From assembly GCF_014397005.1 (NCBI RefSeq), contig NZ_JACGWS010000007.1:62001-126000 (forward strand): a DNA stretch of 64,000 nt, written 5' to 3'. The translations under genes were made by a program, and so were the position numbers. The DNA comes from Kordia aestuariivivens (GTDB taxonomy: Bacteria > Bacteroidota > Bacteroidia > Flavobacteriales > Flavobacteriaceae). Each line of letters opens with the position of its first letter. Within the stretch, counting starts at the first letter, position 1. Below the pieces are notes generated by a model. The model ran no database searches, was not told where the DNA came from, and worked only from the letters and a program-made list of their open reading frames with translations. Shown piece after piece: positions 1-2,349 of the stretch.

Positions 1-36
1 AATCGCGAAACAATGGAAATTAATAGCCTAAGATGA
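1..36 (+). CDS. 3' end of a gene cut by the window edge
   Basis: The first frame stays open from base 1 and reads eleven residues (NRETMEINSLR) before a TGA at 34-36. That stop overlaps the ATG of the HopA1-family gene at 33 in an ATGA arrangement, so the two are almost certainly translationally coupled. HopA1-like proteins in class V lanthipeptide and thioamitide loci are usually paired with an APH-type kinase, so a kinase is a reasonable guess for this gene. Eleven residues cannot prove it. Confidence 0.5.
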   Translation, partial: NRETMEINSLR

Positions 37-1091
37 TGAAAGACACTACATACACACAACAAATAAAAGCAATTACCTCAGCAATAGAAATCACTTCTTT
101 AAGCACCTATAAAGTGCATGAAGAAGAAACGTATGTAAAAAATCAGATGCCGTATCAAACGTTCGCGGAAGATTTTAAATCGTTCGGAAGTAACGCTACG
201 GTTGACACCAATCAGCAACGCATCAACCTTACAAATGCATTAACAAATACAATTTACGCTCAATTCTATTGTGGAATCAAAGATGGTGACCATAACTCTA
301 AAATTCCTCCAAAAGGAGAACGAGAAGCATTTATGGACAAACTTTCACCAGCAAATACGTCCACAAATGGTTTGGATTATAACTGGAATATTTACAATAT
401 AGATGCTGCTTCAGGCAATGCGTATATTCAAAAAAATGACGAATTGCGTTGGTTGCAACCAAATGGATATCATTTTGTAAACCCAAATCAAAAACAAGCA
501 GTTGTCAATACAAAAGTAAACTTGATTCGCTCCAAAGAGAAAAGAGACATTCAACCTGTATTCTATCATGTATTTAGCAATGAAATGTTTCCACAAGAAG
601 TAGAATTGGGACGAATTTACTGGAATGTTTCGCCAGAAGGAGCACCAAAATTGATCAACTTACTCACAACTACGCTGAATGATTATAAAATTCCGTTTCA
701 ATTTAAATGTTTAAATCATCCTGAATTATATGTACGATCAGATTCTGCAGTTTTATACCTGAGTAAAAAACACGTGCAAATCGTCGCTATTATATTAAAT
801 GCTGTAATTCCAAATTTAGAACCGTATCTTGTTGACGAAATTCCGATGTTTACCAAACGGCTTCAGAAAGGTGTTGGGTACGCGGAAGACCCTGGGAAAG
901 GACAAAGTTTTGGAATGAGTAGGTCATCAACCATTGCAGAAGCACTTGTAGATGCTTTTCAGAAAGAAATGGACCAAAAGCAAACGTTTGACAATGTAAT
1001 TCATTTCTTATCGAAAAAAGGAATGATGCTAGATCGTTTACACTTAAACAAACATACAACACTAACGCCAACGTTCCCGACTTATGAATAA
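33..1091 (+). CDS. T3SS effector HopA1 family protein, putative RiPP phospho-Ser/Thr lyase
   Basis: This 352-residue protein matches the HopA1 effector family as found in bacterial RiPP loci. Visible landmarks are the YCG segment near residue 80, the PPKGEREAF stretch near 93-101, a central GRIYWNV strand near 195, and the C-terminal block FTKRLQKGVGYAEDPGKG followed by SFGMSRS near 276-305. In class V lanthipeptide and thioviridamide-type pathways (LxmY, TvaD) such proteins act with an APH-type kinase to eliminate phosphate from Ser/Thr, giving dehydroamino acids. The start at 33 overlaps the upstream stop (ATGA), and the 3' end overlaps the LanC start by 8 bp. It has no signal peptide and is probably cytosolic. 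The family call is good; the lyase role is inference from context. Confidence 0.8.
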   Translation: MMKDTTYTQQIKAITSAIEITSLSTYKVHEEETYVKNQMPYQTFAEDFKSFGSNATVDTNQQRINLTNALTNTIYAQFYCGIKDGDHNSKIPPKGEREAFMDKLSPANTSTNGLDYNWNIYNIDAASGNAYIQKNDELRWLQPNGYHFVNPNQKQAVVNTKVNLIRSKEKRDIQPVFYHVFSNEMFPQEVELGRIYWNVSPEGAPKLINLLTTTLNDYKIPFQFKCLNHPELYVRSDSAVLYLSKKHVQIVAIILNAVIPNLEPYLVDEIPMFTKRLQKGVGYAEDPGKGQSFGMSRSSTIAEALVDAFQKEMDQKQTFDNVIHFLSKKGMMLDRLHLNKHTTLTPTFPTYE

Positions 1092-2349
1092 CATTGAAAT
1101 CACTCCAAAAACAGACGTACAAGTGTATATAAAAACAGCACACAACATTGGGAAATATTTGGCTAAAGAAGCTATTTGGTATAAAGATATGTGCAACTGG
1201 ACAGGTCATGAAGTATCTGTCGTTGGCGGCAAATACGAAACTGTTGTAAAAGCATGTAGCATTGATTTATACAGCGGACTTACAGGAATTGCATTATTTC
1301 TAACCGAACTCGTTCACAAAACACAAGATCCGATCATATTACACACATTAAATGGTACGTTAAATACTATTTATTATAATCTGGAAAAGAGCAAAGTAAA
1401 CAACTTTGGATATTATTCTGGGAAAATTGGTGTGGGTTATACGCTGTGGCGGATTGGAAAAAAAATGCAAAACCCACAACTTGCAGCAAAAGGATTGGAA
1501 TATGTAAAATCTGTAAAAGACGAAGAAATCACCGATCATGAAGTAGATATTATTTCTGGAGCTGCCGGATCGATCTCAGTATTACTAAAACTATATTATG
1601 CTGAAAAAGATGATGAATTTTTAGACATTGCAAAAAAATGTGGTCAATTTCTACTAAAAAAAGCCATCAAAAACGGAGAAACTTGGTCTTGGATGACGGT
1701 TGATCCAAAGCGTGCACTCACCGGATATTCGCATGGCGCATCCGGAATTGCTTCTGCAATGATGGAATTATACGCAACTACCAAAGATGAAGAATATTGG
1801 CATGCGGCTATTGGCGGATTCAACTATGAAAAAACATGGTACAATGATCAGGCAAAAAACTGGCCCGATTTACGTCAACATGAAGAAAACAAACCCTTAA
1901 ACTATGGAACCATGTGGTGTCATGGTGCACCAGGAATTGCAATTGCAAACCTAAAAGCATACGAAATGACAAAGCTTGACTATTTCCTAAATGAAGCTAA
2001 AATTGCCATAGAAACCACTAAAAGAAGTGTCATCAGAGAAACGCAACCAAACATTGGCGCAAACTTTTCATTATGTCACGGATTGGCTGGAAACGCAGAC
2101 ATCTTACTATACGCAAGTCAAATACTTGAAACTCCTGAATATGCACAAATTGCACTAAAAGCAGGCGATTTAGGAATTTCACTATACGATACAACTGGAA
2201 CCGTTTTTCCAAGTGGCGTCAACGATCCAAGCGGAGTAACGCGCGGACAACAAGAAAATCCGGGACTCATGTTAGGACTGTCAGGAACAGGAATGTTCTA
2301 CTTACGTTTAGCTGATATGATAAGTATTCCGTCTGCGTTAGTTCCTTAA
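1084..2349 (+). CDS. LanC-like lanthionine cyclase
   Basis: This 421-residue protein has the LanC alpha/alpha toroid signature. The zinc ligands are visible as C279 in WCHGAPG and C331-H332 in CHGLAG. Probable catalytic residues are D155 in DIISGAAG and H217 in YSHGASG, counterparts of Asp141 and His212 in NisC. LanC enzymes add Cys thiols to dehydroamino acids to form (methyl)lanthionine rings. All key residues are kept, so it should be active. It overlaps the HopA1-family gene by 8 bp, which implies one transcript and a shared pathway. The precursor peptide and kinase are presumably upstream of the window. An intrinsic terminator follows at 2377-2419. Confidence 0.88.
   Translation: MNNIEITPKTDVQVYIKTAHNIGKYLAKEAIWYKDMCNWTGHEVSVVGGKYETVVKACSIDLYSGLTGIALFLTELVHKTQDPIILHTLNGTLNTIYYNLEKSKVNNFGYYSGKIGVGYTLWRIGKKMQNPQLAAKGLEYVKSVKDEEITDHEVDIISGAAGSISVLLKLYYAEKDDEFLDIAKKCGQFLLKKAIKNGETWSWMTVDPKRALTGYSHGASGIASAMMELYATTKDEEYWHAAIGGFNYEKTWYNDQAKNWPDLRQHEENKPLNYGTMWCHGAPGIAIANLKAYEMTKLDYFLNEAKIAIETTKRSVIRETQPNIGANFSLCHGLAGNADILLYASQILETPEYAQIALKAGDLGISLYDTTGTVFPSGVNDPSGVTRGQQENPGLMLGLSGTGMFYLRLADMISIPSALVP

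What the first reader, a model, noticed from the sequence alone, without database searches (positions are those of the whole stretch)
1..2349. HopA1-LanC pair in a flavobacterium: class V-like or new RiPP pathway
Seen: a HopA1-family gene overlaps a LanC gene with intact zinc and catalytic residues, and is ATGA-coupled to an upstream gene cut by the window. Known: HopA1-like lyases act with APH-type kinases in class V lanthipeptide and thioamitide pathways, mostly in Actinobacteria. Inference: a split kinase/lyase/cyclase lanthionine pathway exists in Bacteroidota.
Basis: partly seen in the sequence, partly recalled or inferred. Interest (0 to 1): 0.75.

Follow-up and report, generated by a model that had tools for sequence, protein, structure and literature searches.

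The report
Repeat-core lanthipeptide cluster with separate leader
A marine bacterium and its relatives carry a gene set that looks built to staple and cut one long, repetitive protein into several ring-bearing peptides, with the usual guiding segment apparently made as a separate protein, a combination that would be new for this class of peptides if experiments confirm it.

Summary
The HopA1-LanC pair is real (Kordia genome). The gene cut by the window is an APH-type kinase, closest in NCBIfam to class V LxmK. Upstream lie a 137-aa protein, a 414-aa Thr/Cys repeat protein and a kumamolisin-like peptidase. HopA1 is in 10 of 11 Kordia genomes searched, and all 10 loci hold this gene set. Kinase + HopA1 lyase + LanC is the known class Vb lanthipeptide enzyme set; the substrates are what is new. 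The repeat proteins (282-585 aa) look like leaderless multicore precursors: 367 of 367 Cys have Thr/Ser 2-6 residues before them, and AxAQ linkers separate 7-11 segments. The 137-aa protein is homologous to the leader region fused to a multicore precursor in another Bacteroidota family (hhalign E 2e-12) and carries the same QGDIY box, so Kordia seems to supply its leader in trans. Four further Bacteroidota genera have the enzyme trio beside repeat precursors (one with a broken HopA1 gene). Against the trans leader: some such clusters show no leader at all. In the window's own genome the precursor stops before the conserved last core. No product is known. A July 2026 paper says multicore precursors had not been reported for lanthipeptides.

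The parts
1..31 (+). 3' end of the APH-type kinase gene (LanK-like, 359 aa; whole gene L004:14952-16031). Further upstream, outside the window (window position = L004 position - 16000): repeat precursor L004:13503-14747 (414 aa), leader-domain protein L004:13006-13419 (137 aa), kumamolisin-like peptidase L004:11445-12983 (512 aa), AraC-type HTH protein L004:10601-11041 (146 aa).
33..1091 (+). HopA1-family phospho-Ser/Thr lyase (LanY-like), 352 aa; R194, K225, R235, Y242 fall at the spacing of the CaoY active-site residues
   Evidence: CaoY residues from passages of PMC9486802
1084..2349 (+). Stand-alone zinc LanC cyclase, 421 aa
2377..2410 (+). Terminator-like hairpin (14 pairs) followed by a T-rich tail, after the LanC stop
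   Evidence: consensus match only; 4 terminator-like sites found in the region against 5.1 expected in shuffles

Best explanation
This is a class Vb-type lanthipeptide pathway with a split precursor. The kinase phosphorylates Thr (rarely Ser) in a long repeat protein, the HopA1 lyase eliminates phosphate to give dehydrobutyrine, and LanC adds the downstream Cys to form methyllanthionine rings, most often Thr(-5)-Cys. The repeat protein has no leader. The adjacent 137-aa protein carries the leader domain and the FFQGDIY box and brings enzymes and substrate together in trans. The kumamolisin-like peptidase then cuts at the AxAQ linkers and releases several different ring-bearing peptides. Enzyme identities and conservation are shown at sequence level; every reaction, the trans action of the leader protein and the cutting sites are inferred. 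My split of the confidence: lanthipeptide-type modification of the repeat protein about 0.85; cutting into several products about 0.6; leader acting in trans about 0.55.
For: Kinase: LxmK is the best NCBIfam match; HGDIKWMN and LVDWE motifs. Lyase: PF17914; nearest solved chains 9dk1_B 'Lyase' E 4.4e-5 and HopA1 E 3.5e-4; R193/K224/R234/Y241 (numbered from the second ATG) at spacing 31/10/7 against 32/10/7 for CaoY R187/K219/R229/Y236; these four are identical in all 11 aligned lyases, of which 4 are Kordia, and the exact spacing pattern is met in 9 of 11. LanC residues intact. Precursors: 367 of 367 Cys in 10 Kordia precursors have Thr/Ser at -2 to -6 (1000 shuffles: mean 231.6, max 260), also 28 of 28 in G089 and 39 of 39 in G880; Thr at -5 for 250 of 367 Cys (500 shuffles: mean 61.7, max 80). 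Linkers and 7-11 segments. Leader: the Kordia profile (8 rows) against the N-terminus of the fused 578-aa precursor of G880 gives hhalign E 2e-12, probability 98%, and the genome search with it E 8.8e-10; weaker matches to a Deinococcus precursor (E 3.5e-5, probability 72%) and a Paracoccus one (E 1.2e-4, probability 55%). The box [FMLI][FL][QD]G[DATP][ILMV] occurs once in each of the 10 Kordia loci, always in this protein, and in the precursor leaders of five other LanC-bearing clusters, with 1 hit in 133 kb of background six-frame sequence. The Cys tail of the 137-aa protein has no Thr/Ser partner in 6 of 10 Kordia species. Peptidase: kumamolisin E 3.8e-67 with catalytic residues kept (their roles recalled).
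Against: No product or activity is known. Repeat copies are related, so shuffles overstate significance: of 124 distinct heptamers ending in Cys, 77 have Thr at -5. G089 (81% complete draft) has the repeat precursor and LanC but no leader-domain match; G954 has no leader-domain match and no box, and Aliiroseovarius no box, both with leaderless repeat precursors, so a leader may not be needed. In Aliiroseovarius only 4 of 6 Cys have a partner at -2 to -6. The Paracoccus leader-domain homologue does not match the box pattern, and the pattern was written after seeing the leaders. No exporter was recognised by eye in the Kordia loci. G880 shows no peptidase next to its cluster by eye. The structure model of the leader protein is weak (mean pLDDT 56) with no PDB match at E <= 0.001. 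In the window's own genome the precursor lacks the last core.
Confidence: 0.6

Rival explanations
1. Leader-independent variant: cores or AxAQ linkers are recognised directly by the enzymes; the 137-aa protein is a leftover or has another role, for instance a small Cys-rich product, chaperone or metal-binding partner through its CGCGxCG tail.
For: Leaderless repeat precursors without the box stand beside the same enzymes in G089, G954 and Aliiroseovarius; AQ-type linkers recur in G880, whose cores differ.
Against: The 137-aa protein is under purifying selection (dN/dS 0.045-0.174 in three comparisons), is next to the precursor in all 10 Kordia loci, and its homologue is the fused leader in G880. 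G089's HopA1 match has an in-frame TAG, so that cluster may be decaying.
Confidence: 0.3
2. The repeat protein is modified but not cut into small peptides: it is one large thioether-stapled structural or surface protein, with repeats gained and lost like other structural repeats.
For: Length varies from 282 to 585 aa within one genus; GPTGxxGC units in the window's genome keep the peptide while synonymous codons vary; no exporter was recognised by eye.
Against: Regular AxAQ linkers; a kumamolisin-like peptidase gene upstream in all 10 Kordia loci (typed by search only in the window's genome) and a subtilase-family one in G089; no signal sequence was seen by eye.
Confidence: 0.2
3. No lanthionine is made: the Cys-rich repeats serve for disulphides or metal binding, and the enzymes act on something else.
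For: No chemistry has been shown anywhere in this clade.
Against: All Cys in 12 repeat precursors of three genera (10 Kordia, G089, G880) have an upstream Thr/Ser (434 of 434); Ser is scarce and Thr abundant (43 against 668 in the Kordia ten); the enzyme trio is that of class Vb.
Confidence: 0.07

Closest known systems
Class Vb lanthipeptides (SmoA type; LanK + LanY + LanC)
   Same: Stand-alone APH kinase, HopA1-family lyase and LanC cyclase (passages of PMC12291118 and PMC12328550)
   Different: Reported from Streptomyces in the passages seen; here Bacteroidota, multicore precursor, leader domain on a separate protein. The primary paper (Pei 2022) was not held, so its precursor was not compared.
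Class Va lanthipeptides (cacaoidin, lexapeptide, pristinin, rosin)
   Same: LanK and LanY
   Different: Va has LanD and LanX and no LanC (PMC12291118 passage); two Streptomyces loci with LxmA-type leaders, L063 and L064, lack the box
Class III/IV synthetases (LanKC, LanL)
   Same: Kinase, lyase and LanC-fold activities
   Different: Here three separate genes; the lyase is HopA1 family and the kinase APH family
Multicore RiPP precursors (cyanobactins, microviridins)
   Same: Several cores in one polypeptide separated by short recurring sequences (recalled)
   Different: Other chemistry; those precursors carry their own leader or recognition sequences (recalled)

Membership tests
Class V lanthipeptide pathway (LanK + LanY) | APH-family (PF01636) Ser/Thr kinase | tested here: met
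   PF01636 E 1.1e-7; LxmK E 3.5e-19 but 69 bits against a cut-off of 315
Class V lanthipeptide pathway (LanK + LanY) | HopA1-family (PF17914) lyase with the CaoY active-site Arg/Lys/Arg/Tyr | tested here: met
   spacing and invariance; CaoY residues from PMC9486802 passages
Class Vb subgroup | Stand-alone zinc LanC cyclase | tested here: met
   residues intact
Class Vb subgroup | No LanD or LanX in the cluster | tested here: inconclusive
   none recognised in the ORF lists around 10 Kordia loci, read by eye, not by profile search
Class Vb subgroup | (Me)Lan rings in the product | not testable with these tools
   no product data
Lanthipeptide precursor | N-terminal leader on the same polypeptide as the core | tested here: not met
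   Kordia repeat ORFs begin with a core copy (MFTFFHGCGIPPVTLTC type, with internal copies in some); the leader domain is a separate ORF, gap 83-175 nt, frame offset differs between species. Met in G880
Lanthipeptide precursor | Cys with upstream Ser/Thr partners | tested here: met
   434 of 434 Cys in 12 precursors
Class I (LanB) or class II (LanM) pathway | LanB or LanM encoded next to the LanC | tested here: not met
   upstream genes typed; a LanM lies elsewhere in the genome (L005)
Multicore RiPP | Proteolytic release of several cores | not testable with these tools
   linkers and an adjacent peptidase only

The most novel reading that the evidence does not exclude
A natural split lanthipeptide precursor: one protein is only leader, another is only a string of cores, and the leader protein works in trans and repeatedly on a substrate with up to 60 Cys, giving a multicore lanthipeptide pathway.
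Probability: 0.5. Interest if true: 0.88.

Novelty: new variant of a known kind. Interest (0 to 1): 0.75.

Why it matters
RiPP enzymes normally find their substrate through a leader fused to the core. A leader that nature has cut loose would show that recognition and substrate can be separate genes, and would give a ready system for modifying leaderless, repetitive proteins. [quoted passage not shown] this clade offers candidates in five Bacteroidota genera. The LanK/LanY/LanC set, which a 2025 review ties to actinobacteria (passage; other papers seen place kinase-HopA1 pairs also in Firmicutes and cyanobacteria), is shown here at sequence level in Bacteroidota, and as annotated genes on plasmids of Deinococcus and Alphaproteobacteria.

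Tried and rejected
Programmed readthrough or frameshift joining leader protein and repeat protein in Kordia: rejected, because the gap (83-175 nt) and frame offset differ between species. Leader protein as its own lanthipeptide precursor: unlikely, because its Cys tail lacks Thr/Ser at -2 to -6 in 6 of 10 species; in the other 4, 2 of 3 Cys have one. Hairpin between repeat gene and kinase as a terminator: a hairpin is present in all 10 Kordia loci (best 40-nt window -12.2 to -21.3 kcal/mol), but the terminator scan of L004 did not list it, so I only call it a hairpin. AlphaFold of the HopA1 protein failed (mean pLDDT 37) and its model was not searched. Fold search of the leader model gave nothing. 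tblastn of the leader protein in plasmids found nothing; HopA1 in phages found nothing. The G338 match of the leader profile (E 0.004) falls inside a 697-aa ORF and, by eye, has no RiPP genes around it; dropped. The G115 HopA1 match (24.5 bits) has, by eye, no kinase or LanC near it and is not counted as a cluster. Runella plasmid: kinase and a HopA1 match in two pieces, no LanC annotated.

Full report
Observation. The window is part of contig C44 of a 5.46 Mb, 46-contig genome. All 8 loci found with its HopA1 protein in named genome contigs are Kordia. At 33-1091 lies a HopA1-family ORF and at 1084-2349 a LanC ORF with the residues expected of a zinc cyclase.

Upstream. I fetched 16 kb upstream (L004). 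In order, on the same strand: AraC-type HTH protein (L004:10601-11041), a 512-aa peptidase whose best solved relative is kumamolysin (E 3.8e-67), a 137-aa protein, a 414-aa Thr/Cys repeat protein, a 359-aa kinase, then HopA1 and LanC. The kinase's best NCBIfam model is class V LxmK (E 3.5e-19, under the cut-off). Downstream, a different gene block follows that is shared by 8 of the 10 Kordia loci viewed.

Conservation. HopA1 was found in 10 of 11 Kordia genomes searched. I viewed all 10 loci (L004, L017-L024, L037): each has peptidase, 134-144 aa protein, repeat protein (282-585 aa, 27-60 Cys), kinase, HopA1 and LanC in this order. The eleventh, G002, has no HopA1 and no repeat-protein match, and no significant match to the 137-aa protein (best E 0.65). 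Elsewhere HopA1 is rare: 4 of 299 family genomes, 1 of 395 phylum genomes, 4 of 395 class genomes, 1 of 16 in the family of G880; the first three sets each count the window's own genome. dN/dS for five genes in three comparisons each is 0.045-0.186.

Substrate. In the 10 Kordia repeat proteins there are 367 Cys, 668 Thr and only 43 Ser in 3,896 residues. All 367 Cys have Thr/Ser at -2 to -6 (shuffle mean 231.6, max 260 of 1000), and so do 28 of 28 in G089 and 39 of 39 in G880. Thr stands at -5 for 250 of 367 (shuffle mean 61.7, max 80 of 500), often as T-G-x-x-G-C. Because copies are related, shuffles overstate significance; among 124 distinct heptamers ending in Cys, 77 have Thr at -5. Linkers of the form A[QHEG]AQ cut each protein into 7-11 segments. 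The N-terminus is itself a core copy, so no leader is present. Nine of ten Kordia precursors end in a conserved core (..SIPV..CIPTR.CTGAWP.C); in the window's genome the ORF stops before it, and the frame after the stop holds only a diverged remnant. The enzyme ORFs there are open and under purifying selection. The Kordia terminal core and that of G089 align with a core of G880 better than most shuffles of themselves (6 and 2 of 2000 shuffles reach the score), a modest sign of common origin.

Leader. G880, from another Bacteroidota family, has one 578-aa ORF in which a homologue of the Kordia 137-aa protein is fused to a long multicore region, followed by kinase, HopA1 and LanC (HopA1). hhalign of the eight-row Kordia profile with that N-terminus gives E 2e-12. 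A Deinococcus plasmid has a similar domain fused to a Cys-bearing end, beside a kinase, a HopA1-LanC fusion and an S8-type peptidase (hhalign E 3.5e-5, probability 72%). Paracoccus has a possible further homologue beside kinase and HopA1 (E 1.2e-4, probability 55%) that lacks the box described next. G867 has a different upstream domain but an MLQGDIYNNY box before its repeated cores. A box pattern made from these leaders was scanned in six frames: one hit in each Kordia locus, in the 137-aa protein; hits in the precursor leaders of L029, L032, L033 (two), L051 and L061; two unrelated hits in L030; none in L031, L034, L035, L057, L058, nor in four class V loci without an annotated LanC (L062-L065); 1 hit in 133 kb of background. 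The pattern is post hoc. Together this makes the 137-aa protein most likely a leader domain that in Kordia is encoded apart from its substrate.

Wider picture. In Bacteroidota, five genera have kinase, HopA1 and LanC in this order beside a repeat precursor: Kordia, G089, G880, G867 and G954. Pfam types APH, HopA1 and LANC_like in G867 and G954, APH and LANC_like in G880 and LANC_like in G089; LxmK is the best NCBIfam model for the kinases of G880, G867 and G954. In G089 the HopA1 match has an in-frame TAG, and its kinase frame holds undetermined residues. In G867 the precursor is cut by two contig ends (11 of 11 and 14 of 14 Cys with a partner). G954 has a 106-aa leaderless protein with four copies of a CCWIAVATTSC-like core (12 of 12 Cys with a partner). 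Aliiroseovarius has an 80-aa protein with three copies of a CVSVxFTAGCSF-like core (4 of 6 Cys with a partner). Two other Bacteroidota HopA1 matches lack this set: G115 and the Runella plasmid.

Mechanism. Shown at sequence level: three enzymes with active-site residues kept, a kumamolisin-like peptidase with its catalytic residues, a patterned substrate and a separate leader-domain protein. Inferred: Thr phosphorylation, elimination, Cys addition to give methyllanthionine, action of the leader in trans, and cutting at AQ linkers. Cutting after Gln has a precedent in ElxP (passage of PMC10885120), which is S8, not S53; a word search of that review found no S53, sedolisin or kumamolisin. Export and biological role are unknown.

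Known or new. The enzyme set is class Vb (passages of PMC12291118, and PMC12328550). PMC9486802 reported co-occurrence of HopA1-family and APH genes in diverse contexts and cyanobacterial precursors (passages). PMC11118758 mentions LanC next to a nucleotidyltransferase by precursors in Kordia (passage); PMC7477175 and PMC10734526 mention lanthipeptide or proteusin clusters of Kordia, without this system in the passages seen. Paper searches listed no title or abstract start on a multicore or split-leader lanthipeptide in Bacteroidota; most lists were capped, I saw listings only except for ten papers of which I saw passages, and subscription journals are largely missing. None of the leader or repeat proteins tested gave a significant Pfam or NCBIfam match; the few listed had E 0.02 or higher, far under cut-off.

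Noticed in passing
L005:9361-12234 (same genome, contig C34): A LanM (DUF4135 + LanC domains, 957 aa) sits elsewhere in the genome, so this strain has a second, class II lanthipeptide enzyme.
   Followed up: no
L023:11487-11711: In one Kordia species a 74-aa peptide with a double-Gly type leader and seven Cys follows the LanC gene directly; a possible extra substrate.
   Followed up: no
L004:14745-14877: In the window's genome the repeat precursor ends early; the same frame after the stop holds a diverged remnant of the core that ends the precursor in nine other Kordia genomes.
   Followed up: partly
L004:14748-14951 and the same gap in nine other Kordia loci: A hairpin lies between repeat gene and kinase in all 10 loci; 8 share an AGCTGCCTGT-type stem or a close variant. 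It may set the ratio of substrate to enzyme transcripts.
   Followed up: partly
L036:9156-10175: A weak HopA1 match in another flavobacterial genome lies in an ORF next to genes that look like those of a contractile injection system (recalled, not tested).
   Followed up: no
window:3110-8270: Downstream block with a radical SAM-like and a methyltransferase-like protein that resembles an arsenosugar pathway (recalled, not tested); its first genes follow the cluster in 8 of 10 Kordia loci viewed.
   Followed up: no
L065:1240-2241: Nostoc plasmid: four consecutive small ORFs of equal size before two larger genes, the second of which is the HopA1 match; the two that I translated are identical 65-aa peptides without Cys.
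   Followed up: no
L035:10732-11784: The HopA1 gene of G089 has an in-frame TAG and its kinase frame undetermined residues, so this cluster may be decaying or badly assembled.
   Followed up: no
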